From the NCBI RefSeq assembly GCF_000426445.1, contig NZ_KE384526.1, positions 186,001-250,000 on the forward strand: a stretch of 64,000 nt of DNA, in the 5' to 3' direction. The notes below the pieces were generated by a model. It was not told the origin of the DNA, did not search any database, and was given only the letters and a program-made list of their open reading frames with translations. Made by a program: the position numbers and the translations under genes. Position 1 is the stretch's first letter, and each line of letters begins with the position of its first letter. Origin of the DNA: Brevibacterium album DSM 18261 (GTDB taxonomy: Bacteria > Actinomycetota > Actinomycetes > Actinomycetales > Brevibacteriaceae). Shown in pieces: positions 14,763-26,351 of this stretch.

Positions 14763-15551
14763 ATGCGGACCGCACCCGCCCTCATCGCCCTCTCAGCAGC
14801 CTGCGCCCTCGCGCTCGCCGGCTGCGGCTCAGGAGGCGGAGACAGCTCGGGGCAGGACCCCGAGGCCCAGGCGGAGCAGAGCGCGCCGGCAGGTCAGGGC
14901 GGCCAGGAGGGCGCTCCCGCCGCGCCCGAGGCCGATGTCGCAGATGTGCCCGAGGTCGTCGCTGTCGTCAACGGCGAGGAGATCTCCCGGGACGAGTTCG
15001 TCTCGAACTACGAAGGTCAGCTCCAGCAGTCGGCGATGCAGAGCCAGCAGACGGGCGAGGAGGTCGACCAGACGGCCCTCAAACAGCAGGTGGCGCAGAT
15101 GCTCGTCGACAACCGCCTGCTCACGCAGGCCGCGGACGACGCCGGGATCGAGGCGAGCGAGGAGGACATCGACGCCACGCTCTCCGACATCGCCGCGCAG
15201 AACGGCATGGGCTCCGCCGAGGAGGTCGTCACCGCGCTCGGCGAACAGGGCCTCAGCGAGGAGCAGATCCGCGAGGACGCCGCCTCCCAGTACCGGGTGA
15301 ACACCTTCATCAGCGAGGAGGCCGATATCGAGGCGCCCTCCGAGGAGGAGCTGCGCGAGCAGTACGACGGCTATGCGGCGCAGATGGAGCAGGCAGGCGG
15401 TCAGGGCGGCCAGCAGCCGGCGGAGGTCCCGCCCTTCGAGGAGATCCGCGATCAGCTCGCCGAGCAGATGGTCAGCCAGCAGCAGAATGCCGCCGCCCAG
15501 GAGATCGTCGCCGGCCTCGGCGAGGACGCGGACGTCACGATCAACCTCTGA
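14763..15551 (+). CDS. SurA-N-like lipoprotein, candidate extracytoplasmic chaperone
   Basis: This 262-residue protein has a lipoprotein signal peptide ending in the lipobox LALAGC (Cys about residue 21), an acidic Gln/Glu/Ala-rich linker and a SurA N-terminal-type helical domain starting at VVAVVNGEEISRDEF. No parvulin prolyl-isomerase domain follows; the protein ends after a further helical segment. It is likely anchored on the outside of the membrane and acts as a holdase-type chaperone. The ATG at 14763 has AGGAG at 14751-14755, and TAGCCT (14727-14732) is a possible -10. Its 3' end overlaps the convergent flavoprotein gene by 11 nt. Confidence 0.85.
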   Translation: MRTAPALIALSAACALALAGCGSGGGDSSGQDPEAQAEQSAPAGQGGQEGAPAAPEADVADVPEVVAVVNGEEISRDEFVSNYEGQLQQSAMQSQQTGEEVDQTALKQQVAQMLVDNRLLTQAADDAGIEASEEDIDATLSDIAAQNGMGSAEEVVTALGEQGLSEEQIREDAASQYRVNTFISEEADIEAPSEEELREQYDGYAAQMEQAGGQGGQQPAEVPPFEEIRDQLAEQMVSQQQNAAAQEIVAGLGEDADVTINL

Positions 15552-17496
15552 GGCGGCAGGCCTTCGCTCGCACCTCGCTCAGCGCCGTGCGCAGGGTGCC
15601 CACCAGTTTCGCGTTGTCCCGGAACACGCGGGCGCCGATGCCGGGACGGGAGAAGGCCTCGGCGGTCGAGCCGGCCACGGACGGCCCCACGAGCAGGAGC
15701 GCATCGTGCACGCTCCCGTCCGGCCGCACGGCCCGGCCCGCCTCGTCCGCGACGAGCTTGGCGGCACCTCCGCCGCCTTCCTCGAGCAGCAGATGGCCGG
15801 AGCGCAGCAGGCCGCGCAGCAGTGCGTCCTCGGCCCGCGCGGCAGCCACGGGCGCGAGGCGCGCGTCCATCAGCCACCGCGCCCGCACCTCGTCGGGATG
15901 GGCCCGGCTGGTCGCCGCGAAGGCCGCAGACCCTTTGCCTCCCCCGTCCACCCGCACGCGCGCATCGGCGCCGAGGAAGCGCACGATGCCCGCCCGGTGC
16001 AGTGCGAGCAGGTTCTCCAGGCGCTCCGGCGGCGGGCCGGAGGCGATGTAGGAGAAGAGCCCGTGGAACCGCCCGTCGACATTGCGGATCCGGTCCTCGG
16101 GCGCGAACACGCCGGCGCTCACGAGCTCGCGCGTCACGTAGTACGCGGAGACGAGCGCGAAGAACACCGCCGAGTCCTGGGAGTACCGCGCATCCGCGGC
16201 CCGGTCGATCTCCCCGCGGACGTGTCCGGCGGCCTCGGCCTCGAACTCCTCCTGCGAGGCGAACTCCCGGCCGGCGAAGGGCCGGTCCAGCCATGTGAGG
16301 TCGAAGCGGTCGACGGGATCCGGCACGGTGCGCTCCGCGAAGCGGATCCACTCACCGTGCAGGCGGCGGGCCTCCTCGGTCCTGCCTGCGATGAAGGCCC
16401 GGTGCCAGGCGGCGAACCGCTGCTCGAAGTCCGCGGCCGAGGCGGTGGTCCTGCCCTCGTACCGCGTCGCGAGCTCCGCGTAGTGGGCGTGCGCGAGCTC
16501 GGCCTCCAGCAGCGGGAACAGCGTCCTCTCGCAGTCGACGAAGCCCTCCGGTCCGCGCAGCGCCCGCAGCGTCTCCGCCGTCAGCCAGCGGGTGGGACCG
16601 ATGCGCAGGCCCTCGGGCCGGTGACCCAGCTTGGACTTGTACGGCACACCGCGCCGCGAGCCCGCCCACAGCAGCGGCTCGCGTCCGGAGGGGCGATACA
16701 CGACGGTCCCCGGGCCCTCGCCGTCCGGGGCGGGCACCCGCTCGAACCTCCCGCCGCGGTCGGCCGTCACCATCATCATGGCGTCGATGAAGGCCAGGCC
16801 CATCCCCCGCACCAGCACATCCTCGCCGGCGGGCAGCACCGAGAGGTCCACATCGGCGGTGTAGCCGGGTGCGACGTAGCCGAGCCCGTGCGCCGCCGCC
16901 TGCTCCCGCAGAGTCGCGGTCTCGGCGTCATCGGCGACCTCGAGGAAGCCCTGCGCGAGGACGAGCCCGTCCGCGAGGACGCTGTGGTAGACGGGCTCGC
17001 CTGCAGGCCCGCGCTCCTCGTAGGACACGATGTGCTGGTCGCCGAAGGGCTCGGCGGCGAGCGCGCGCCCGCGCACCGTCTCCAGCGCGAAGCCGGCCGG
17101 CAGCGCCTCGGTCGCCCGCGCGTACGCCCAGGCCAGGTACTCCGCCTGCACACGCCGAGGCGCGAAATCGCTCCCGCGCAGCCCTCCCGCAGGCACCCCC
17201 AGGTGGGAGAGGTCCCGCTCCGCCGCCCAGTCCGCGAGGCTGGGTCCGGTGAGCGCGGGGAACGGCGCGTCCGCATCCGGGAAGATCGTCACGTCCTCGG
17301 CCAGCGAGTTCATCCAGAGGGTCGGCGACTGGGCGTGCCGCCAGATCCTCCCGCCGCCGGGAGGGAAGGGATCGACGACGATGATCTCGACGTGCGCAGG
17401 GAAGGCGGCCCTGTCCTCCCGGGCCGCCGCGGCGAGCGCGAGGAGCAGACCCGTCGTCTTGGGTCCGCCGCCCACGAACACGAGGCGGGACGTCAC
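15541..17496 (-). CDS. FAD/NAD(P)-binding protein (NAD_binding_9 type), last gene of the importer-monooxygenase operon
   Basis: This 651-residue flavoprotein begins MTSRLVFVGGGPKTTGLLLA, a Rossmann dinucleotide-binding loop, followed by PPGGGRIWRHAQSPTLWMN and a DLSVLPAGEDVLVRGMGLAF block. This is the pattern of the large FAD-NAD(P)-binding proteins of COG4529. The GTG start at 17496 overlaps the preceding stop (GTGA). Members of this family have few assigned functions; some are predicted to hydroxylate or reduce. Coupled to two flavin-dependent monooxygenase genes, it may supply reduced flavin or perform a further oxidation of the imported compound. This role is inferred from the operon alone. 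Confidence 0.85.
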   Translation of the reverse strand: MTSRLVFVGGGPKTTGLLLALAAAAREDRAAFPAHVEIIVVDPFPPGGGRIWRHAQSPTLWMNSLAEDVTIFPDADAPFPALTGPSLADWAAERDLSHLGVPAGGLRGSDFAPRRVQAEYLAWAYARATEALPAGFALETVRGRALAAEPFGDQHIVSYEERGPAGEPVYHSVLADGLVLAQGFLEVADDAETATLREQAAAHGLGYVAPGYTADVDLSVLPAGEDVLVRGMGLAFIDAMMMVTADRGGRFERVPAPDGEGPGTVVYRPSGREPLLWAGSRRGVPYKSKLGHRPEGLRIGPTRWLTAETLRALRGPEGFVDCERTLFPLLEAELAHAHYAELATRYEGRTTASAADFEQRFAAWHRAFIAGRTEEARRLHGEWIRFAERTVPDPVDRFDLTWLDRPFAGREFASQEEFEAEAAGHVRGEIDRAADARYSQDSAVFFALVSAYYVTRELVSAGVFAPEDRIRNVDGRFHGLFSYIASGPPPERLENLLALHRAGIVRFLGADARVRVDGGGKGSAAFAATSRAHPDEVRARWLMDARLAPVAAARAEDALLRGLLRSGHLLLEEGGGGAAKLVADEAGRAVRPDGSVHDALLLVGPSVAGSTAEAFSRPGIGARVFRDNAKLVGTLRTALSEVRAKACRLRG

Positions 17497-18332
17497 GACG
17501 CTCCCGCCGCAGGCGCCCCCACGGCGAGGGCGGGTGAGCCCGCCAGGTCCAGGGCCGCGTCCACGGTGAGCGTCCCGCCGTCCTCGGGTCCGCCGGCCTC
17601 GACGATGTGCGGGCTGCGGCCGCGCGCGGCGGCGCGTTCGCCGAGCTCCGCCGCGGAGATCCCCGCATCCGGCAGCAGGAGCACGAGGTCGGCGAAGGCG
17701 AGCGCGGCCTCGGCGGCCTCGGGGGAATCCGCCGTCACGAGCGCGGGCAGCTCGCCCTGCGGCGGGCGGGGCACGATCGAGGGCCCCTTGACCGTGAACT
17801 CCTCCCCCACCGAGTCCGTGCCCGCGAAGTCCACGTAGTGCACCTTCTCCCGGTCGAGGAAGCGGGCTGTGGCCACGTCGCGGATCTCCGCATCGGGCTC
17901 CCACGAGGTCCACAGGCGGGTGACGACCTCGTCGATCTCCGCGGCCTCGCGCCAGGCCTCGACGAGCGGGGCGACCGGACGACGGCCCGTCAGTCGGGCG
18001 GCGGCCTCGGTCGTCTGGACCACCGGCGACCAGCCCCCGCGACCGCGGGAGACGTGGTCAAGGGTGGCGGTGGCGGTCGCGACGTGGAAGGGCTCCGTGT
18101 GGGTGACCGGCACCTCCGGCACCAGCACCGCCTGCGTGGTGGCCGGTCCCAGCCAGGCCGCGGCGGTGAGTGCGTCCGCGCCCGAGGCGCCGTCGTCGCC
18201 CAGCACGATCCACCGCACGCCGGCCGCGTCGAGGGCGCGGACCGCCTCCCGGAGCGCGGGCGGGTCCGCGAGCGCGCCCGGTTCGAGGCGCACAGCGGTG
18301 GGTGCGGTGGCGGATGCGGGTGCGTCAGACAT
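17493..18332 (-). CDS. Short luciferase-like (LLM) flavin-dependent oxidoreductase
   Basis: This 279-residue protein has the luciferase-like monooxygenase pattern: an early strand VRWIVLGDDG, PEVPVTHTEPFHVA, TLDHVSRGRGGWSPV and, later, an HYVDFAGTDSVGEEFTVKGPS segment that resembles the substrate-site region of NtaA-type enzymes. It is clearly shorter than the usual 330-480 residues and lacks the C-terminal part of the barrel. It may therefore work only as a partner of the full-length enzyme encoded immediately upstream, in the manner of heterodimeric luciferases. It overlaps that gene by 8 nt and the FAD-protein gene by 4 nt. Confidence 0.8.
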   Translation of the reverse strand: MSDAPASATAPTAVRLEPGALADPPALREAVRALDAAGVRWIVLGDDGASGADALTAAAWLGPATTQAVLVPEVPVTHTEPFHVATATATLDHVSRGRGGWSPVVQTTEAAARLTGRRPVAPLVEAWREAAEIDEVVTRLWTSWEPDAEIRDVATARFLDREKVHYVDFAGTDSVGEEFTVKGPSIVPRPPQGELPALVTADSPEAAEAALAFADLVLLLPDAGISAAELGERAAARGRSPHIVEAGGPEDGGTLTVDAALDLAGSPALAVGAPAAGAS

Positions 18333-19815
18333 GTGCGGTCTCCTTCTCCGCAGCCTGTGACTGCGTGCTGTGCTCTGTGCTGTGCTCGTCCGCGGCACTG
18401 CGCTCTCCGATGCTGTGCTCCGCGGCGCGGGCGGCGGCGCGCGCTGCCGCCCACTGCGCCTCCGGGCGGTACCCGGCCAGGCCCAGGTTGTCCCGCAGCA
18501 TCCCGCCCTCCGGGTACTCCGTGCGGTAGACGCCGCGCTCCTGCAGCTCGGGGACCACACGCGCCACGAACTCGTCGAGGCCGCCGGGAGTGAGGTGCGG
18601 GATGAGGATGAAGCCGTCGGCTGCGCGCTGCTGGACGTACTCGTTCATCTGCTCGGCCACCCGGCCCGGGGTGCCCACGAACGAGTGGCGCGCGGACACC
18701 TCGATGACGAGCTCGCGGATCGAGAGTCCCTCCGCCTCCGCCCTCTCGCGCCAGGCGCGGGCCACCGGGCGCGGGTCCTTCACGTGCCGGACCCGGCCGC
18801 GGGTGATGTCCGCATTGTCGAAGTCCGGGTCGATCTCCGGCAGCGGGCCGTCCGGATCGCAGGCGGTGAGATCGCGGCCCCACAGCTGCTCGAGGAAGGC
18901 GATCGCCCCGGGACCGGACACCTGCTGGCGGCGGACATGGGCGGCACGCTCGTGCGCCTCGGCCTCGGTGTCGCCCAGCACGAAGGTGACGCCGGGATAG
19001 ATCTTGAGCTCGTCCTCTCCGCGGCCGAAGCGGGCGAGCCTGCGGGAGATGTCCGCGTAGAAGGCCCGACCCTCCTCCAGCTCCGAGTGGCGCGTGAAGA
19101 TCACGTCCGCGCTGCCCGCCGCGAAGTCCCTCCCGTCCGGGGAGTCCCCTGCCTGGAAGATCACGGGGTGCACCTGCCGGCTGCGCGGCAGCGGATACCT
19201 CCCCTCGATGTCGAAGAAGCGCGAGGAGTGCGCGAACCGGCCGCCGGGCTGCGCGGGACCGGCATCGCCTCCGGCCCCGGCCGCCTCGTCCCCGCCGGAT
19301 TCCCATATCGTCCGCGCCGCGGAGATGAAGTCCTCGGCCCGCGCATAGCGGTCGGCGTGATCGAGATAGCCGCCGCGGCGGAAGTTCGCGCCGGTGAAGG
19401 CGTTGTTCGTCGTGACGACGTTCCAAGCCGCACGACCTGCGGAGAGGTGGTCGAGTGTGCCCAGCTTCCGTGCGAGGTCGAAGGGCTCGTTGAACGTCGC
19501 GGAGAAGGTGCCGGCGAGCCCCAGGCGCTCCGTGACCTGGGCGACAGCGGCGAGCACCGTCGCCGTCTCCGGGCGGCCCACGACGTCGAGGTCGAAGATC
19601 TCCCCCTTGTGCTCACGGAGGCGCAGCCCCTCCGCGAGGAACAGGAAGTCGAACAGTCCCGCCTCCGCGGTCCGCGCGAAACGCTCGAAGCTGTCGAAGT
19701 CGATGTGCGAGCCCCCGGCCGGATCCGTCCAGACGGTCGTGTTGTTCACGCCCGGGAAGTGGGCGGCGAGGTGGACCTCGCGTGCGGGTGCGCTGTGGGC
19801 GGGATGCGTGGTCAT
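18325..19815 (-). CDS. NtaA/DmoA-family FMN-dependent monooxygenase
   Basis: This 496-residue enzyme is of the nitrilotriacetate/dimethyl-sulfide/dibenzothiophene-sulfone monooxygenase group. Typical blocks are AAHFPGVNNTTVW, FARTAEAGLFDFLFLAEGL, the LDHLSAGRAAWNVVTTNN flavin/substrate site, FRRGGYLDHADRYARAEDF and PVIFQAGDSPDGRDFAA. Such enzymes use reduced FMN and oxygen to cleave C-N or C-S bonds. The ATG at 19815 overlaps the stop of the double-ATPase gene, so the enzyme is made with the importer, which suggests that the imported solute is its substrate. A C-S or S-alkyl compound is the leading guess given the cysteine-rich leader upstream. Confidence 0.9.
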   Translation of the reverse strand: MTTHPAHSAPAREVHLAAHFPGVNNTTVWTDPAGGSHIDFDSFERFARTAEAGLFDFLFLAEGLRLREHKGEIFDLDVVGRPETATVLAAVAQVTERLGLAGTFSATFNEPFDLARKLGTLDHLSAGRAAWNVVTTNNAFTGANFRRGGYLDHADRYARAEDFISAARTIWESGGDEAAGAGGDAGPAQPGGRFAHSSRFFDIEGRYPLPRSRQVHPVIFQAGDSPDGRDFAAGSADVIFTRHSELEEGRAFYADISRRLARFGRGEDELKIYPGVTFVLGDTEAEAHERAAHVRRQQVSGPGAIAFLEQLWGRDLTACDPDGPLPEIDPDFDNADITRGRVRHVKDPRPVARAWRERAEAEGLSIRELVIEVSARHSFVGTPGRVAEQMNEYVQQRAADGFILIPHLTPGGLDEFVARVVPELQERGVYRTEYPEGGMLRDNLGLAGYRPEAQWAAARAAARAAEHSIGERSAADEHSTEHSTQSQAAEKETAHV

Positions 19816-21809
19816 CGTGCTCCGATCGGGACGGGACGGACAGGGGTGCTGGACGCTGCTGTGCGGGGCTCGGCTGTGCGGGGCACGGCTGCGCCGGACG
19901 CTGCACGGCGGTGCGCGGTCCCGGGGACCGCGGCGACGAGGGCACGGGTGAGCCCGGTGCGCGGACGGTCGAAGACCTCGGCGGCGGGTCCGGATTCGAC
20001 CACGCGGCCGCCGGCCATGATCAGCACGTCGTCCGCGATGTGCCGCACGACGGCGAGGTCGTGGCTGATGAAGACGTAGGCGAGCCCCAGGCGCTCCTGC
20101 AGGTCGAGGAGCAGTTCGAGGATCTGCTGCTGCACCGAGACGTCGAGTGCGGACACGGGCTCGTCGAGGACGAGGATCTCCGGGGTGCTCGCGAGCGCGC
20201 GGGCGAGCGTGACCCGCTGACGCTGGCCGCCGGAGAGCTCGCGGGGCCGCCGCTCGGCGAACTCCGGGGGCAGCGCCACGAGGTCGAGCAGCTCCGCGAC
20301 CCGTGCCCGGCGCTCCGCCCGGCCGCCGAGCCGGAAGCCCCGCAGCGGCTCCGCGATCGACTGTCCCACCGTGAACGAGGGATCGAGCGCGGCCGTCGCG
20401 TCCTGGTGCACGAACCGCGCCCGCCGGGACAGTGACCGCACCTTCCGCGGCAGCGTCGCAAGGTCCTCGCCCAGCACGGTGCCGGTGCCGGCATCCGCGG
20501 ATTCGAGGCCCACGAGGATGCGGGCGGTCGTCGATTTGCCCGATCCCGATTCGCCGACGATGCCCAGCGTCCGCCCCGCACGCAGTGTGACGTCCGCGCC
20601 GTCGACGGCAGGGCGAGCGGCACCGCCCCGATGCCCGGTGTAGGTCTTGACCACGCCGGTGACGCGGATGAGGGGCTCGCCCGCCCCGCCCTCAGGGGCG
20701 GAGTTCTGCTCCTGCCCGCCCTGCGCCCGATGGCTCTGCAGCAGCGGCACGCCGGTGAGGCCCGGTGCCGCCGCGATGAGCCGCTTCGTGTACTCCTGCC
20801 GCGGGCGGTCGAGGATCCGCGCGGCCGGACCGGATTCGACCAGCCGGCCGCCCGACATGACGAGGACCCGGTCGGCCCGGTCCCGGGCGATGCCGAGATC
20901 GTGGGTGATGAGGATGAGGGCCGTGCCCCGTTCGGCGACGAGGCCGGCGAGCAGGTCGAGCACCTGCTTCTGCACCGTCACGTCGAGGGCCGAGGTGGGC
21001 TCGTCCGCGATTATGAGCCCCGGATCGCCGGCCAGGGCGAGGGCGATGAGGACCCGTTGCCGCTGTCCGCCGGAGAACTCGTGCGGGAAGCGGCCCGGGT
21101 GCGCCTCGGGGTCCAGGCCCACCTGAGCGAGCACGGTGCGGAGACGCTCCTCCGCCTCGGCACGCGTACGGCCGTGGAGGGCCAGGACCTCCTTCAGCTG
21201 CGAGCCGATGGTGCGCACCGGGTTGAGCCCGGCCCCCGTGTCCTGCGGGACATAGCCGATCCGGGTGCCCCGCACGCCGTGCCAGGCCCGCTCCCCCGCG
21301 CCGCGCATGTCCGTGCCGAACACGCTGTGCTCCGCGGCCTCGATGCGCGCCCCGCCCGTGAGCAGACCCGCGGCGACGGCCGCCGTCGTCGTCTTGCCCG
21401 AGCCCGATTCGCCCACGATCGCGACCGTCTCCCCCGCGCGCACCTCCAGGTCGACCCCGGCGACGGCGGTCACCTCGCCGTCGCGTCCGGGATAGCCGAC
21501 CGTGAGATCGCGCAGGCGGAGCACGGGAGTCGGGTCCGCCTCGGCCGCGGGCACGGTGGACGCGGCAGCGGCCGGTGCGGTCGTGGGTGCCGGCGCGGTC
21601 GCGGGGGCGGCTGCACTCGCGAGTGCTGATGCGGATCCAGCCCCCGCAGGCGCCTCGGACAGCGCCGGCACCGAGGACAGGGTGGTGCCCGTGAGCTCCT
21701 GCTCGGCGTGCCGGGCCAGGCCGAGGAAGACGGAGAGGGGGCTGGGCACCGCAGACTGCACGGGTGCGGGCTGGGACAGAGCGGCCTGGGCCAGGGCTGC
21801 GGGGTTCAT
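19812..21809 (-). CDS. Double ABC ATPase of peptide/nickel-type importer (DppD-DppF fusion)
   Basis: This 665-residue protein has two complete nucleotide-binding domains. Domain 1 has GESGSGKTT, FSGGQRQRVLIALALA and LIIADEPTSALD; domain 2 has [25 protein letters not shown] and ILVLDEPVSALD. Each is followed by the peptide-transporter C-terminal tail. An Ala/Pro/Thr-rich region of about 110 residues precedes domain 1. The ATG at 21809 is chosen because it overlaps the DppC-type permease stop; an upstream frame extension is a shadow of that gene. The fusion powers uptake through the two permeases encoded upstream. Confidence 0.93.
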   Translation of the reverse strand: MNPAALAQAALSQPAPVQSAVPSPLSVFLGLARHAEQELTGTTLSSVPALSEAPAGAGSASALASAAAPATAPAPTTAPAAAASTVPAAEADPTPVLRLRDLTVGYPGRDGEVTAVAGVDLEVRAGETVAIVGESGSGKTTTAAVAAGLLTGGARIEAAEHSVFGTDMRGAGERAWHGVRGTRIGYVPQDTGAGLNPVRTIGSQLKEVLALHGRTRAEAEERLRTVLAQVGLDPEAHPGRFPHEFSGGQRQRVLIALALAGDPGLIIADEPTSALDVTVQKQVLDLLAGLVAERGTALILITHDLGIARDRADRVLVMSGGRLVESGPAARILDRPRQEYTKRLIAAAPGLTGVPLLQSHRAQGGQEQNSAPEGGAGEPLIRVTGVVKTYTGHRGGAARPAVDGADVTLRAGRTLGIVGESGSGKSTTARILVGLESADAGTGTVLGEDLATLPRKVRSLSRRARFVHQDATAALDPSFTVGQSIAEPLRGFRLGGRAERRARVAELLDLVALPPEFAERRPRELSGGQRQRVTLARALASTPEILVLDEPVSALDVSVQQQILELLLDLQERLGLAYVFISHDLAVVRHIADDVLIMAGGRVVESGPAAEVFDRPRTGLTRALVAAVPGTAHRRAASGAAVPRTAEPRTAASSTPVRPVPIGAR

Positions 21810-22768
21810 GAGCGGCTCCTTCCGGATCCGAGGGCGAGGGCGATGCGGTTGACGGAGAGGACGACCGCGGCGATGAGGAGACCGGGCATCGTGGTGAGCC
21901 ACCATGCGCTCGCGATGAAATCGCGGCCCTCGGAGACGAGGAGGCCCCATTCCGGCTGCGGCGGCGGTGCGCCGTAGCCCAGGAAGCTCAGCGCCGAGAC
22001 CGCGAGGATCGCGGAGCCGAACTCGAGCGCCGCGAGTGCGAACACGGGGCCCACGGCGTGCGGGAGCACATGGCGGACCACGATCTCCGGGGTGCGGATG
22101 CCGTTCAGGCGGGCGGCCTCGACGAACAGCGTCGAGCGCCAGCGCAGCACCTCGCCGCGCGCCACCCGGGCGAAGGCCGGGATCGAGGCCAGGGCGACCG
22201 CGAGCGCGATGTTCACCGCGCCGAAGCCCAGGGCCACGACGACGGACATCGACAGCAGCAGTCCGGGGATGGACTGGAGGACGTCGATGACGCGCATGAG
22301 GACCGCATCGACGCCGCAGCCGAGGAAGCCCGCGACCACGCCGATCGCCGTGCCCGCACCGAAGGCGATGAGCACCGCGATAGCCGTGGTGCCCAGCGAG
22401 GAACCGGCGCCGTGGATGATCCGGGAGAGCACGTCGCGGCCCAGCTGGTCCGTGCCGAGCAGCGCACCGGTGCCCGGTGCCTGGAGCCGCTGGAGCGGGT
22501 CTCCGGAGAGCGGGTCGCGGTCCGTGAACAGGTCAGGGGCGAGCGCCCAGGCCGTCACGAGCGCGAGGAGGACCGCGGCGAGGATCAGCCCCGGCCGGAT
22601 GCGGCCCAGCGGGGCAGTACCCCGGAGGCTCGGTCTCCCGCCGGGGGTCCGGGACGGCTCTGCGGACTGCGTGTGCTGTGCGCCTGCGTGCGAGGCTCCA
22701 GTGCGCTGCGCCTCCGCTTCCTGCACGTGCGGGGCGGTGGGCTGTGATGAGCTCAGTCCGGCGCTCAT
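21806..22768 (-). CDS. ABC importer permease, DppC type
   Basis: This 320-residue membrane protein has a long Pro/Ala-rich cytoplasmic N-terminus, one helix (PGLILAAVLLALVTAWALA), the periplasmic-type DPLSGDPLQRLQAPGTGALLGTDQLGRDVLSRI segment and the EAA loop EAARLNGIRTPEIVVRHVLPHA of the peptide/opine/nickel family. Five or six membrane spans are expected. It overlaps both neighbours by 4 nt and pairs with the DppB-type permease. Confidence 0.93.
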   Translation of the reverse strand: MSAGLSSSQPTAPHVQEAEAQRTGASHAGAQHTQSAEPSRTPGGRPSLRGTAPLGRIRPGLILAAVLLALVTAWALAPDLFTDRDPLSGDPLQRLQAPGTGALLGTDQLGRDVLSRIIHGAGSSLGTTAIAVLIAFGAGTAIGVVAGFLGCGVDAVLMRVIDVLQSIPGLLLSMSVVVALGFGAVNIALAVALASIPAFARVARGEVLRWRSTLFVEAARLNGIRTPEIVVRHVLPHAVGPVFALAALEFGSAILAVSALSFLGYGAPPPQPEWGLLVSEGRDFIASAWWLTTMPGLLIAAVVLSVNRIALALGSGRSRS

Positions 22769-23829
22769 GCGCGCACCTCCTCGGTCGGACGGGTGGGGGT
22801 GGGGCTGTGGGTCTGGTTCGCCTCGGCACCGGCCGCAGGCAATGCCTCAGCCGAGGCCTCCGCCGCTCTCCGCACTGCCGCCCGCACTGCCGGGCGTGTG
22901 CGCGGGTCCGCGAGCGGGTACAGCAGATCCGTCGCGAGGTTGACGAGCACGAACACGACGGCCGAGAAGACCACGATGCCGAGCACCAGCGGGATGTCCT
23001 GTGAGGAGACCGCGGACTCCGCGAGCCGGCCCAGGCCGCTGCGGGTGAAGACCGTCTCGACGATGACCGTCCCGCCCAGGAGGTTGCCGGTGATGACGCC
23101 GGCGACGGAGAGCAGGGAGAGGCTCGCCACCCGCAGCGCGTGCGAGAGCAGGAGGCGGGGCCGGCCCATCCCGGCGGCCCGGAAGGTCGTGACGTACTGC
23201 TCGCGCCAGGCGCGGTCGAGCGCGCGCAGCAGGACCTGCGCGACCATCGCACCGAGCGGCAGCGCGAGCGTCGCGGCGGGCAGGACGAGGCCGAGGAGGC
23301 CCTCGGCGCCCAGGGCAGGCACCCAGCCGAGCCGGAACGAGAAGACCTGCAGCAGCATGAGGCCCACCCAGAACGTCGGCAGCGCCACACCCAGGCCGGG
23401 AAGTCCGGACAGGAGGGCGCGCAGCGCCGGTCGCCGGGCATTCACGGCGAGGACCGCGAGCGCGGTGCCGCCCACGACTGCGGGCACGAGGGCGGCGACG
23501 GCGAGCGCGACGGTGGAGGGCAGCGCGGCTCCGATCGCCTCGACCACGGGCTGGCCGGTGGCGAAGGAGCTGCCCAGATCGAACCGGAGTGCCGCGGTCA
23601 GCGCCAGGAGGTACTGGACGAGCAGCGGCCGGTCGAGGTTGTACTCGGCGCGGACGGCGGCGATCTCCTCCGGCGCGGCCGTGGACTGGTCCCCGCCCAG
23701 CAGGATCGCCACGGGGTCGCCGGGCAGCACGTAGAGCACGAGGAAGGCCAGCGTGAAGGCCGCCCACAAGACCACGGCGCCGTGCCCCAGGCGCCGCAGC
23801 ACGAGGGCCGCGGTGGGAGTGAGTCGCAT
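22765..23829 (-). CDS. ABC importer permease, DppB type
   Basis: This 354-residue membrane protein begins with a span containing LGHGAVVLWAAFTLAFLVLYVLPGDP, the diagnostic start of DppB/OppB permeases. It continues with IAAVRAEYNLDRPLLVQYL and the EAA-type loop REQYVTTFRAAGMGRPRLLLSHALR. About six spans are visible. The ATG overlaps the stop of the lipoprotein gene by one base (TGATG), so translation is coupled. Confidence 0.93.
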   Translation of the reverse strand: MRLTPTAALVLRRLGHGAVVLWAAFTLAFLVLYVLPGDPVAILLGGDQSTAAPEEIAAVRAEYNLDRPLLVQYLLALTAALRFDLGSSFATGQPVVEAIGAALPSTVALAVAALVPAVVGGTALAVLAVNARRPALRALLSGLPGLGVALPTFWVGLMLLQVFSFRLGWVPALGAEGLLGLVLPAATLALPLGAMVAQVLLRALDRAWREQYVTTFRAAGMGRPRLLLSHALRVASLSLLSVAGVITGNLLGGTVIVETVFTRSGLGRLAESAVSSQDIPLVLGIVVFSAVVFVLVNLATDLLYPLADPRTRPAVRAAVRRAAEASAEALPAAGAEANQTHSPTPTRPTEEVRA

Positions 23830-25427
23830 CAGCGCTCACCCGCCAGCCAGGTGTCGTAGAGCTGGACGCGCGAGGACGCCTCGAAGTGGAGGCCCTGCAC
23901 CTCGGGCGACGTCGCCCAGACGCCGGAGAGCTCGACGAGCGGGATCGCGTGCCCCTCCTCGATGAGCTTCACCGCGGCCTGCTCGAACAGCGCGGTGCGT
24001 GCGGCCGGGTCCGTGGTCACGGTCGTCTCCGTGAGGATGTCCTCGATCTCCGAGGGTTCGCGCTCGTTGACGTTGCGGGCTCGCGCGTCGAAGACCGTCC
24101 TGATGATGTCCGCGTCCGAACGGGTGAGGTTGTAGAAGTCGAAGGTGAGGTCGCCGGACTCCTGCGCCGCCGTGTGCTCGGCGAGCGTGGCCCTGTCCAG
24201 CTGGAGGTCGATGCCTGCGGCCCGCAGCTGCTGCTGCACGAGCTCGAGGAACGGCACCGTCTGCCAGTAGCTGAGCTCGATGCTCAGCGGCTCGCCGTCG
24301 CGCTCGCGGATCCCGGTCTCCGCGTTGAGCTCCCAGCCGGCCTCGTCCAGCAGCGCCGCGGCGCCCTCCGGATCGAAGGCGAGGTGCGCGGAGAGGTCGG
24401 TGTACTGGGGCGTGGACTGCGACAGGACCGAGGTCGCCGGCGACTGGTGCGAGGAGATGACGGCGGCGAGCTCCTCCCGGTTGATCGCCTTGCTGATCGC
24501 CCGGCGCACCTCCGGCTCCTCCGCGATGGGCTTCGACTCCTTGGGCAGGAGGTTGTAGGTCATGCCCGGATTGGGCCGCGAGAGCACGGGGAAGCCCGAG
24601 GCCTCCAGCGTCTCCTCGTCCTGCGGCAGCACCGCGGTGTCGACGTCGATCTGTCCGGAACTGAGGCTGCCGTTGCGCACCGTGGCCTCCGGCACCACCG
24701 TGATCTCGATGCCATCGAGATGGGCGGGGCCCTCGTGCCGGGCGAGCGAGGACGGCCAGGCGTAGTCGTCGTAGCGGACCAGCGAGGCCGATTCCGCCGG
24801 GGTGAAGCTCTCGAGGGTGAAGGGACCCGTGCCGACGATCTCGCCGCCGCAGCGCTCCTCGGGAGTCTTCTCCAGCGTCTGAGAGGAGTAGAAGCCGAGG
24901 ATCATGGTCGAGGTCGCCTGCAGGAACTGGGCATTCGGCTCCTCGAAGGCGACGACGGCGGTGTGCTCGTCCGGCGTCTCGACGGAGCGCAGGCCTGCGA
25001 GGTAGGAGGAGCCCTGCGTGGCCCTGGCCCCGAGGTCCTGGATCGCCGCGAAGTTCTCCGCCACGGAGGCCGAGGTGAAGGGCGTCCCGTCCTGGAAGGT
25101 CACCCCCTCGCGCAGATGGAAGGTGAACTCGCGCGAGTCCTCACTGACCTCCCAGCTCTCCGCGAGCCAGGGCACGATCTCCCCGGTCTCCGGGTCCTGG
25201 TCGGTGAGCGAATCCGTCACCTGGCGCGTGACATTGAGTGCGGTGTTCTGGCCCACCTGCTGGCCGTCGACGCACTGCGGGTCCGTGTCGTAGGCGATGC
25301 GCAGGGTGCCGCCGCTCACGGGCTCGCCCGCGGCGGCGGTGGGATCGGGCTGACTCCCGCAGGCGCTCAGCAGCAGGACGGCGGACAGTGCCGCTGCGGT
25401 CAGCGAGAGGGCGGAACGTGTGTGCAT
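23829..25427 (-). CDS. Solute-binding lipoprotein of peptide/nickel-type ABC importer
   Basis: This 532-residue SBP_bac_5 protein starts with a lipoprotein signal whose lipobox is LLLSAC (Cys about residue 22). Mature-part motifs include GGTLRIAYDTDP, TFHLREGVTFQDGTPFTSASV and AISKAINREELAAV. It captures the solute outside the membrane. The family binds peptides, opines, nickel complexes and small organosulfur or glutathione-like ligands, so specificity is open. AGGAGA lies a few bases before the ATG. It is the first gene of a seven-gene operon and is preceded by a long leader with a cysteine-rich small reading frame. Confidence 0.92.
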   Translation of the reverse strand: MHTRSALSLTAAALSAVLLLSACGSQPDPTAAAGEPVSGGTLRIAYDTDPQCVDGQQVGQNTALNVTRQVTDSLTDQDPETGEIVPWLAESWEVSEDSREFTFHLREGVTFQDGTPFTSASVAENFAAIQDLGARATQGSSYLAGLRSVETPDEHTAVVAFEEPNAQFLQATSTMILGFYSSQTLEKTPEERCGGEIVGTGPFTLESFTPAESASLVRYDDYAWPSSLARHEGPAHLDGIEITVVPEATVRNGSLSSGQIDVDTAVLPQDEETLEASGFPVLSRPNPGMTYNLLPKESKPIAEEPEVRRAISKAINREELAAVISSHQSPATSVLSQSTPQYTDLSAHLAFDPEGAAALLDEAGWELNAETGIRERDGEPLSIELSYWQTVPFLELVQQQLRAAGIDLQLDRATLAEHTAAQESGDLTFDFYNLTRSDADIIRTVFDARARNVNEREPSEIEDILTETTVTTDPAARTALFEQAAVKLIEEGHAIPLVELSGVWATSPEVQGLHFEASSRVQLYDTWLAGER

Positions 25428-25954
25428 GGAAGAGGTCTCCTGGATGTGCAGACTCGATGTGCGGAGATGGAGGTGCGGAGCGTTCGCTGTGCACTCGCTT
25501 CACCCAGCCGAATGCGGCGAAACGGCTGGGAGAAATGATCAGTTGAGAATGGAACAGCACGCAGAAACGGCAGGGTGGAATGGCGGAGCGCCGGAAATGC
25601 GGCACACCGGCGAAACCGACGAGTCAGGTGACTCTGCGCGTCAGCGGAAAGGGAGTGGAGAATGCATGTGCAGCGATGCTGCGAGCGGTGATTCTGCGAG
25701 CGATGGGGTCATGCTCAGCAGCCCGGATGAGGCAGAGCCGTGCCTGCGAAGCCACGCGACACCTGCAGGGCAGGGACGCCGGGTGAGGAACGCCGCGGAG
25801 CAGCAGCTCGCACAGGGCCGTACCGGTCATGCAGAGCAGTGCTGTTCACACGATCACACGGAGCAGGATCGTTCACACGGAACGGATCGCAGAGGCACCG
25901 CACACCTACACGAGTGCTGGTGCCTGCACGGGCGCTGTGGTCACATGGAGATGC
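25428..25954 (-). other. Long untranslated leader of the importer-monooxygenase operon, no gene seen
   Basis: This 527-nt stretch separates the small cysteine-rich frame from the binding-protein gene. Reading frames on both strands lack ribosome binding sites, homology and normal codon bias. It contains short repeats (CGTGTGA units around 25848-25882 on the minus strand) and a perfect hairpin near the gene start. I take it as mRNA leader. Confidence 0.5.
25503..25530 (-). promoter_or_regulatory. Hairpin in the operon leader, possible attenuator element
   Basis: CCCAGCCG and CGGCTGGG (25523-25530 and 25503-25510 on the message strand) form a perfect 8-bp stem with a 12-nt loop, 76 nt before the start codon of the binding-protein gene. 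No T-run follows, so Rho-dependent or structural control is more likely than intrinsic termination. Confidence 0.4.
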
Positions 25955-26050
25955 TCACATGCAGATGCGCGCACACATGGAGCGACGACAATCGAGGGCC
26001 TCGAAGCGGGCGGCCAGTGCCCAGACCTGCGAGTTCCTGAATGCGATCAT
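25955..26050 (-). CDS. Cysteine-rich leader peptide (31 aa), candidate cysteine attenuator
   Basis: The frame starts at ATG 26050 with GAGGAAG (26058-26064) at ideal distance and encodes 31 residues. The peptide begins MIAFRNSQVWALAARFEAL and ends DCRRSMCARICM, so three Cys codons fall within the last eleven sense codons before the stop. A promoter-like pair lies about 110 nt upstream. Actinobacteria are known to use short cysteine-rich reading frames to couple cysteine supply to expression of downstream sulfur genes. I infer the same role here for the operon starting at 25427. The peptide itself probably has no function of its own. Too short for homology-based proof. Confidence 0.55.
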   Translation of the reverse strand: MIAFRNSQVWALAARFEALDCRRSMCARICM

Positions 26051-26092
26051 CGTGAGTCTTCCTCTGTGTCGGTCTTCTGTACCGGCAGACGG

Positions 26093-26110
26093 GCGGAAGC
26101 AGTCTTCCGC
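26093..26110 (-). promoter_or_regulatory. Perfect hairpin in the 5' region ahead of the cysteine-rich leader peptide
   Basis: GCGGAAG and CTTCCGC form a 7-bp stem with a 4-nt loop, about 40 nt before the leader-peptide ATG. A second possible stem, CGGTTC with GAACCG, lies just upstream on the message. The 5' region is therefore structured; it does not match any riboswitch consensus I know. Confidence 0.45.
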
Positions 26111-26164
26111 ACAGCGGTTCGGGGAAAACCCTCCCGTGGAGGCGAAATCTCTGAACCGAGAACA

Positions 26165-26194
26165 ACAATAGCGTCCCCGGAGACAGGTCACCAA
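26165..26194 (-). promoter_or_regulatory. Predicted promoter for the leader peptide and importer-monooxygenase operon
   Basis: On the minus strand TTGGTG (26189-26194) and TATTGT (26165-26170) are separated by 18 nt, a good sigma-70-type pair. Transcription would start near 26158. The flanking 26195-26358 holds only the upstream region of the divergent alcohol dehydrogenase gene. Confidence 0.5.
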
Positions 26195-26345
26195 TCCATG
26201 AAAGCCCGTGACGCCTCATGACGATCAGCGGCGCATTCACACCCGCCGCGCTGCGCTGGTCCGCGACTCCGCCGCGCCGGTCCGGTCCGCTCCCCCAGCG
26301 TGCCCGACTGCCGGGACCGGCCTCGGCGACGGCTCTCCTCCGTCC

Positions 26346-26351
26346 TACACT
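26346..26351 (+). promoter_or_regulatory. -10 element TACACT, leaderless start
   Basis: TACACT ends 7 nt before the ATG at 26359 and no ribosome binding site is present, which indicates a leaderless message for the alcohol dehydrogenase. Confidence 0.55.

What the first reader, a model, noticed from the sequence alone, without database searches (positions are those of the whole stretch)
25955..26050. Cysteine-rich leader peptide upstream of the importer-monooxygenase operon
Seen: a 31-codon frame with ideal ribosome binding site and promoter ends in DCRRSMCARICM, with Cys at three of the last eleven positions, followed by a long structured leader and then the operon. Known: short cysteine-rich frames act as cysteine-responsive attenuators in mycobacteria and related actinobacteria. 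Inferred: ribosome stalling at the Cys codons when cysteine is short turns on the operon. This also gives the main reason for calling the operon a sulfur system.
Basis: partly seen in the sequence, partly recalled or inferred. Interest (0 to 1): 0.75.

Follow-up and report, generated by a model that had tools for sequence, protein, structure and literature searches.

The report
Conserved single-cysteine leader peptide, Brevibacterium
A short, conserved peptide gene sits in front of a nutrient-import operon in Brevibacterium and a few Rothia-group genomes; its sequence and setting suggest that it tunes the operon to the cell's cysteine supply, and what is conserved is one cysteine at the end of a fixed 21-residue stretch, not the cysteine-rich tail first noticed.

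Summary
The 31-codon frame is real, on the minus strand (ATG 26050, stop ending 25955), but the interpretation needs correcting. All 20 genomes found to carry the importer, of 95 searched in two groups, have a homologous frame directly before it; one further genome has the frame before other, sulfur-linked genes. Conserved are the first 21 codons, roughly M-I-A-F-[KR]-N-S-Q-x-W-A-L-x-x-R-F-E-A-L-D-C. The tail with two of the three Cys is nearly neutral and can be three residues long. The core is under peptide-level selection (pN/pS 0.14, tail 0.81), and its only invariant Cys is the rare codon TGT in 19 of 20 sequences. Tails are still Met/Cys-rich. Homologous importers in two other groups have different Cys leaders, and 12 of 17 Brevibacterium loci have an operator of an apparent sulfur regulon on both sides of the leader. 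I judge it a cis-acting, sulfur-responsive leader whose conserved chain may help to stall the ribosome at Cys21. No terminator, unusual RNA structure or start-site switch was found; the output step is unknown and Rho is a guess. New family of a known kind. Stalling and cysteine response are untested.

The parts
25955..26050 (-). leader peptide gene, 31 codons plus stop
   Evidence: strong homologues in 18 of 60 family genomes, own included (two further hits at E 0.035 and 0.042 taken as chance)
25988..26050 (-). conserved core, codons 1-21 (MIAFRNSQVWALAARFEALDC)
   Evidence: pN/pS 0.14 against 0.43 for the SBP gene in the same 15 loci; N6 Q8 W10 A11 L12 R15 F16 E17 D20 C21 invariant in 20 of 20 rows
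25988..25990 (-). invariant Cys21 codon TGT, proposed stall site
   Evidence: Cys in 20 of 20 rows, TGT in 19 of 20; TGT is 4 of 90 Cys codons in 31 window genes
25958..25987 (-). variable Met/Cys-rich tail RRSMCARICM
   Evidence: tails of 19 sequences: 18 Cys and 37 Met in 210 residues; tail pN/pS 0.81
26060..26064 (-). GAGGA, Shine-Dalgarno of the leader frame
   Evidence: read from the sequence
26165..26194 (-). weak candidate promoter TTGGTG-18-TATTGT
   Evidence: by eye; below the threshold of the scan
25428..25954 (-). 527-nt stretch between leader stop and SBP start; no terminator found; C 0.37, G 0.26
23829..25427 (-). substrate-binding protein, SBP_bac_5; best NCBIfam match TIGR04028, below its cut-off
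22765..23829 (-). ABC permease (Opp/Nik type)
   Evidence: below equivalog cut-offs
21806..22768 (-). ABC permease (Opp/Nik type)
   Evidence: below equivalog cut-offs
19812..21950 (-). double ABC ATPase (Opp/Dpp type); frame start uncertain, overlaps the permease
18325..19815 (-). NtaA/DmoA family FMN monooxygenase (TIGR03860, 374.6 bits, cut-off 279.7)
15541..17913 (-). FAD-NAD(P)-binding protein (PF13454), possibly same operon; relative downstream in 14 of 16 fetched loci

Best explanation
The frame is a cis-acting regulatory leader peptide of a probably sulfur-scavenging importer/monooxygenase operon. Shown by sequence: it is conserved as a peptide and found directly before this importer, or in one genome before other sulfur-linked genes. 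Inferred: the conserved 20-residue nascent chain slows the ribosome as the codon for Cys21 (a rare TGT) enters the decoding or peptidyl site, so that low cysteine (scarce Cys-tRNA), and in many strains low Met/Cys at the tail codons, leaves a ribosome paused there.
For: Co-occurrence: of 95 genomes (60 family, 35 of the Rothia-containing genus), 20 have the SBP at E<=1e-120 and all 20 have the leader next to it; 1 has the leader only (G011); 74 have neither (Fisher p 1.2e-19, not corrected for relatedness). Core pN 0.072 against 0.194 for the SBP in 15 loci, 1 of 541 SBP windows of 19 codons being as conserved; core pS 0.530 against 0.448, so the constraint is on the peptide rather than the RNA. 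Cys21 is TGT in 19 of 20 against 10 of 116 Cys codons in genes of 14 Brevibacterium loci. Tail Met+Cys 55 of 210 residues against about 2.3% in window genes; ATG in frame 37 times, 0 and 1 in the other frames (rows are related). G011's leader precedes an NtaA-like gene and a cystathionine gamma-synthase-like gene, both below NCBIfam cut-offs (Pfam Cys_Met_Meta_PP above). Other Cys leaders precede homologous importers in 6 of 6 g17 and 5 of 6 g43 genomes examined, with TGT at one fixed Cys (6 of 6, 5 of 5). Operators of an apparent sulfur regulon lie on both sides of the leader in 12 of 17 Brevibacterium loci. No terminator-like site. The leader-SBP stretch holds more C than G in 16 of 16 family loci modelled (no control run).
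Against: No expression, ribosome-profiling or reporter data. One Cys codon is a weak starvation sensor. The leader-SBP stretch is poorly conserved apart from the operator and the start region, and a modelled stalled ribosome changes access to the SBP start in no consistent way in 18 loci. In the Rothia group the gap is 85-91 nt with about as much C as G, so no Rho site is evident there. The second operator copy could mark a promoter that bypasses the leader. 8 of 20 homologous loci outside the family had no Cys leader that I accept.
Confidence: 0.6

Rival explanations
1. Plain cysteine-starvation attenuator, as first proposed: only the Cys codons matter and the rest of the peptide is filler.
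For: Cys-rich end in the window; Cys leaders before homologous operons; mycobacterial precedent, known here from a passage of a review (PMC9031893).
Against: Tail Cys are not conserved, while nine non-Cys core positions are invariant in members of two families although synonymous sites vary freely.
Confidence: 0.2
2. Ligand-sensing arrest peptide: the nascent core binds cysteine or a sulfur metabolite in the exit tunnel and stalls at Cys21, as TnaC does with tryptophan.
For: Invariant W10 lies 11 residues before C21; SecM has W155-P166 (11) and TnaC W12-P24 (12) (passages). Peptide-level conservation stops after C21.
Against: The spacing of one Trp is a loose resemblance; no Pro at the site; arrest untested.
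Confidence: 0.3
3. A functional microprotein or signalling peptide acting in trans, possibly taken up by the neighbouring peptide-type importer.
For: Strong amino-acid conservation; peptide-type importer next door.
Against: No hydrophobic secretion signal by eye (no predictor run); one strong match per genome, next to the operon or, in G011, other genes; C-terminus free to vary.
Confidence: 0.08
4. RiPP-like precursor: conserved leader and variable core peptide.
For: Conserved N-terminal part followed by a variable Cys/Met-rich end.
Against: The variable end is only 3 residues in the Rothia group; the operon proteins scanned match no family that I know as RiPP-modifying.
Confidence: 0.03

Closest known systems
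Cys-rich leader peptides of mycobacteria (NCBIfam NF042936 Ms4527A, NF042933 Ms5788A, NF042934 'putative leader peptide'; Canestrari et al. 2020, not held, known here only through citing papers)
   Same: Short frame upstream of other genes, Cys near the end, presumed cysteine-responsive attenuation.
   Different: No match of the Brevibacterium-type peptides to any of these models; one conserved Cys and not a run; has a Shine-Dalgarno, whereas the mycobacterial ones are described as leaderless; a conserved 20-residue chain precedes the Cys.
Candidate leader peptides before cys operons of Mycobacterium and P. acnes and cbs of B. longum (PMC1262725, passages seen)
   Same: Cys near the stop, no conserved terminator; the authors suggest Rho.
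   Different: Runs of Cys codons there; a single fixed Cys and a free tail here.
S. lividans metL before metNIQ, MSTTSDRTPATEATTTPGARCMCRRMCAF (PMC8079986, passages seen)
   Same: Met/Cys-rich end like the tails here; importer of a sulfur amino acid downstream; no clear terminator.
   Different: No visible similarity to the conserved core; leaderless.
TnaC and SecM arrest peptides (PMC10941005, PMC10951299, passages seen)
   Same: Fixed residues spread over the positions before a stall site, Trp 11-12 residues before it; TnaC works through Rho.
   Different: No sequence homology, no Pro; arrest untested here.

Membership tests
Mycobacterial-type Cys-responsive leader peptides | match to NCBIfam leader models | tested here: not met
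   no hit for the window peptide or for two other core-type members; Pfam none
Mycobacterial-type Cys-responsive leader peptides | run or cluster of Cys codons near the stop | tested here: not met
   one invariant Cys; tail Cys vary from 0 to 3 over 19 sequences. The window's own tail does have two more
Mycobacterial-type Cys-responsive leader peptides | conserved position directly upstream of sulfur-acquisition genes | tested here: met
   20 of 20 operon-bearing genomes; the sulfur role of the operon is itself inferred
Mycobacterial-type Cys-responsive leader peptides | leaderless start | tested here: inconclusive
   GAGGA 9 nt before the ATG argues against; the transcription start is unknown
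Mycobacterial-type Cys-responsive leader peptides | expression responds to cysteine through the Cys codons | not testable with these tools
   needs reporters
Classical attenuator (trp type) | terminator hairpin with U-run and antiterminator | tested here: not met
   no terminator-like site in 25300-26350; fold z -0.85; window only
Ribosome arrest peptide | peptide-level conservation ending at one site | tested here: met
   core pN/pS 0.14, tail 0.81
Ribosome arrest peptide | ribosome stalls on the sequence | not testable with these tools
   needs toeprinting or profiling
SD-sequestering translational attenuator | stalled ribosome frees the downstream start site | tested here: not met
   18 loci modelled: most changes with the P site at codon 20 or 21 are 0.06 or less, the extremes +0.19 (L037) and -0.15 (L035). 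L042's start was picked inside the gene and is unreliable

The most novel reading that the evidence does not exclude
A cysteine-gated arrest peptide: a sequence-specific nascent chain (N-S-Q-x-W-A-L-x-x-R-F-E-A-L-D) that by itself poises the ribosome to stall at a single rare-codon cysteine, so that one Cys codon gives a sharp sulfur sensor; the tunnel may even read free cysteine or a metabolite. Different actinobacterial families would have evolved separate chains around the same fixed TGT Cys codon before the same importer.
Probability: 0.3. Interest if true: 0.8.

Novelty: new variant of a known kind. Interest (0 to 1): 0.55.

Why it matters
Cysteine leaders are usually explained by runs of Cys codons. 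This family keeps one Cys and a fixed chain before it, which separates two ideas that are usually confounded, codon starvation and nascent-chain arrest, and makes them testable with a 21-codon element. It also gives a sequence tag for an organosulfur-type import operon in Brevibacterium and links it to a candidate sulfur regulon.

Tried and rejected
Three Cys codons of the end as the conserved element: rejected. Structured or terminator-type leader: not found (Rfam at gathering scores 0 hits). SD sequestration relieved by a stalled ribosome: no consistent effect in 18 modelled loci. RNA-level constraint on the core: not supported, since synonymous sites vary as much as in the SBP gene. Paralogous copies in the own genome: none at E<=0.05. 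Taken as chance: the weak matches (E 0.052 and worse), (G029, G059) and six (G174 at 2.5e-4, which reads out as a frame with a stop where D20 would be; G113, G146, G188, G211, G369 at 0.008-0.01; of these only G188's locus was looked at). Seven loci without an accepted leader were read further upstream and gave no convincing one. Frames that I did not accept: in L116 a 48-codon frame with the end SCCCRP, 401 nt before the SBP match, which also falls outside the length limits; in L123 and L124 Cys-containing frames without a Shine-Dalgarno or far upstream. In print: search 68 (Brevibacterium + leader peptide, 15 of 21 listed; the only Brevibacterium-titled one speaks of lanthipeptide leaders, passages), 69 (leader names, 3 papers, none on this) and 70 (core letters, 0 papers) found no description; searches listed none in their titles and abstracts; most subscription journals are not held.

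Full report
What is there. The frame lies on the minus strand: ATG 26050-26048, 31 codons, stop ending at 25955, with GAGGA 9 nt before the ATG. 527 nt after its stop begins the operon: substrate-binding protein (SBP), two permeases, a double ATPase and an NtaA/DmoA-family FMN monooxygenase. The genus is Brevibacterium, from the record titles of its closest relatives.

Conservation of the frame. The window peptide found strong matches (E<1e-5) in 17 of 57 Brevibacterium genomes, its own included; the rest were at E>=0.05. A profile added one member in another genus of the family, G057. A scan of the collection of 84,980 species by two exact peptide patterns returned 14 loci, 13 Brevibacterium and one Rothia koreensis; it reaches close relatives only, and missed G057. 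Of 16 fetched Brevibacterium loci, 15 have the SBP, permeases and ATPase downstream and 14 the monooxygenase (one contig, L031, ends inside the ATPase); the exception is G011. G011's leader (L080) precedes a gene with a TIGR03860 match below cut-off (60.9 bits against 279.7) and a Cys/Met-metabolism PLP enzyme closest to cystathionine gamma-synthase (499 bits against a cut-off of 513).

Co-occurrence. The SBP at E<=1e-120 is in 17 of 60 family genomes, exactly the leader carriers other than G011. In the genus taken to hold Rothia koreensis (G429, inferred from identical leader DNA and contig position), 3 of 35 genomes have the leader and the same 3 the SBP. Together 20 of 20 operon genomes have the leader beside it, 1 genome has the leader alone and 74 have neither. 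Relatedness makes the p value optimistic.

What is conserved. In 20 rows (two of them, the window and L031, have the same peptide) N6, Q8, W10, A11, L12, R15, F16, E17, D20 and C21 are invariant (alignments). After C21 nothing is fixed, and in the three Rothia-group genomes the peptide ends in PIR or RIC. Over 15 loci, core codons 3-21 have pN 0.072 and pS 0.530, the SBP gene pN 0.194 and pS 0.448, the tail pN/pS 0.81; 1 of 541 SBP windows of 19 codons is as conserved in protein (a simple uncorrected count, near saturation). With 19 sequences the core ratio is 0.16. Selection acts on the amino acids, and it stops at the cysteine.

Sulfur signature. C21 is TGT in 19 of 20, while TGT is 4 of 90 Cys codons in 31 window genes and 10 of 116 in genes of 14 other Brevibacterium loci. 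Tails of 19 sequences hold 18 Cys and 37 Met in 210 residues; ATG is in frame 37 times and 0 and 1 times in the other frames. Several rows are close relatives sharing one MPMPM block, so these are not independent counts; 18 of the 19 tails hold at least one Met or Cys, R. koreensis none.

Homologous operons elsewhere. One search found the SBP (E<=1e-110) in 26 genomes outside the family; the best locus of 20 of these 26 was examined. One (G400) has the core-type leader. 6 of 6 of genus g17 have a peptide of the form SH[VT][AP][IV][LW]RRVVD[LF]C...CR, two of the six identical; 5 of 6 of g43 have SRRRH[IV]DLLRVC[AT][DS]LC, two of the five identical. 8 loci had none that I accept: one lies at a contig end, in three the SBP follows another gene closely, and one (L116) has a Cys-rich frame that I did not accept. 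Of these other types, 3 of 3 g43 peptides and 1 of 2 g17 peptides tested match NCBIfam Cys-leader models, all below the cut-offs. In each type one Cys is always TGT, the last in g17 (6 of 6) and the second in g43 (5 of 5); in nearby genes TGT is 4 of 79 and 16 of 80 Cys codons. A close monooxygenase relative (58-61%) is in 6 of 6 g43 loci, while 5 of 6 g17 loci and both Rothia-group loci showed none in the stretches fetched, so the leader goes with the importer more than with the monooxygenase.

A second layer. In 12 of 17 Brevibacterium loci ATTGTTGAGCAA lies 75-77 nt before the leader ATG and GTTGAGC[AG]AT recurs 91-142 nt after its stop; the window and L031, L033, L035 and L045 have neither, nor do G057 and the two Rothia-group loci checked. 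The exact 13-mer ATTGTTGAGCAAT has 34 sites in 24 of 57 genomes; the reversed control has none. 13 sites are at leaders, 21 elsewhere. Of the 18 of these 21 that came as loci, 10 lie at a TauE-type permease (9 with a visible Rrf2 gene), 2 at a TsuA-like gene, 1 at a cystine-type ABC permease, 2 at Nramp genes and 3 at other genes. One representative of each was checked by profile: Rrf2 (TIGR00738 above cut-off; the CymR model 83 bits against 195), TauE (Pfam), TsuA (NF041049, 398 against 645; Pfam Sulf_transp above), Nramp (NF037982 above), cystine-type permease (best match, below cut-off). The variant TGTGTTGAGCAATC has 12 sites in 10 of 57 genomes, 6 at leaders; of the other six, three lie by TIGR04028-type SBP genes (one profiled) and one just before a gene of the nitrite/sulfite reductase family (best 311 bits against 594). 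This points to a sulfur regulon and supports 'sulfur system' by a separate route, although Nramp and other targets show that it is not pure. The window's own genome has no exact site, so there the leader may carry the regulation alone.

Mechanism. No terminator-like site, no Rfam hit, no unusual fold, no consistent start-site switch in 18 modelled loci. The leader RNA holds more C than G in the family, compatible with Rho, but I ran no control and the Rothia group does not show it. The chain before C21 resembles arrest peptides in spacing only: W10 to C21 is 11 residues, W155 to P166 in SecM 11, W12 to P24 in TnaC 12. I therefore hold a cis-regulatory leader as likely (about 0.85), cysteine as its signal as probable (about 0.65) and a contribution of the nascent chain as about even; the output step is open.

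Against it. Everything here is sequence. The second operator could belong to a promoter that bypasses the leader. One Cys codon is a poor sensor unless the chain helps, which is the reason for the arrest hypothesis and also its weak point, since no arrest has been shown.

Noticed in passing
L145, L155, L152, L161 and others: Palindrome ATTGTTGAGCAAT marks an apparent sulfur regulon in Brevibacterium: Rrf2 regulator with TauE permease, TsuA-like transporter, cystine-type permease, Nramp transporter. Which regulator binds it is not known.
   Followed up: partly
L032, L034, L036-L044, L046: The two operator copies around the leader are about 311-316 bp apart in ten loci, about 269 in L043 and about 290 in L046 (hand arithmetic), lengths that differ by near-whole numbers of DNA turns; a looping repressor is possible but untested.
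   Followed up: no
L132, L133, L140: The variant TGTGTTGAGCAATC lies by SBP genes (L140: TIGR04028 above cut-off) with a divergent glyoxalase-like gene beside it.
   Followed up: partly
L138 1500-3012: The same variant lies just before a nitrite/sulfite reductase family gene, itself after a gene that looks like a sirohydrochlorin chelatase (recalled, not profiled).
   Followed up: partly
L080 6502-8922: In Candidatus Brevibacterium intestinavium the leader precedes an NtaA-like gene and a cystathionine gamma-synthase-like gene; the importer SBP was not found in that genome (G011) at E<=1e-120.
   Followed up: partly
window 15541-17913 (-): 790-aa protein with an FAD-NAD(P)-binding domain (PF13454) and no NCBIfam match; a relative lies downstream of the operon in 14 of 16 fetched loci.
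   Followed up: no
L172-L182 upstream of SBP: Two other Cys leader types; the five peptides tested match NCBIfam leader models below cut-off or not at all; each type has one Cys that is always TGT.
   Followed up: partly
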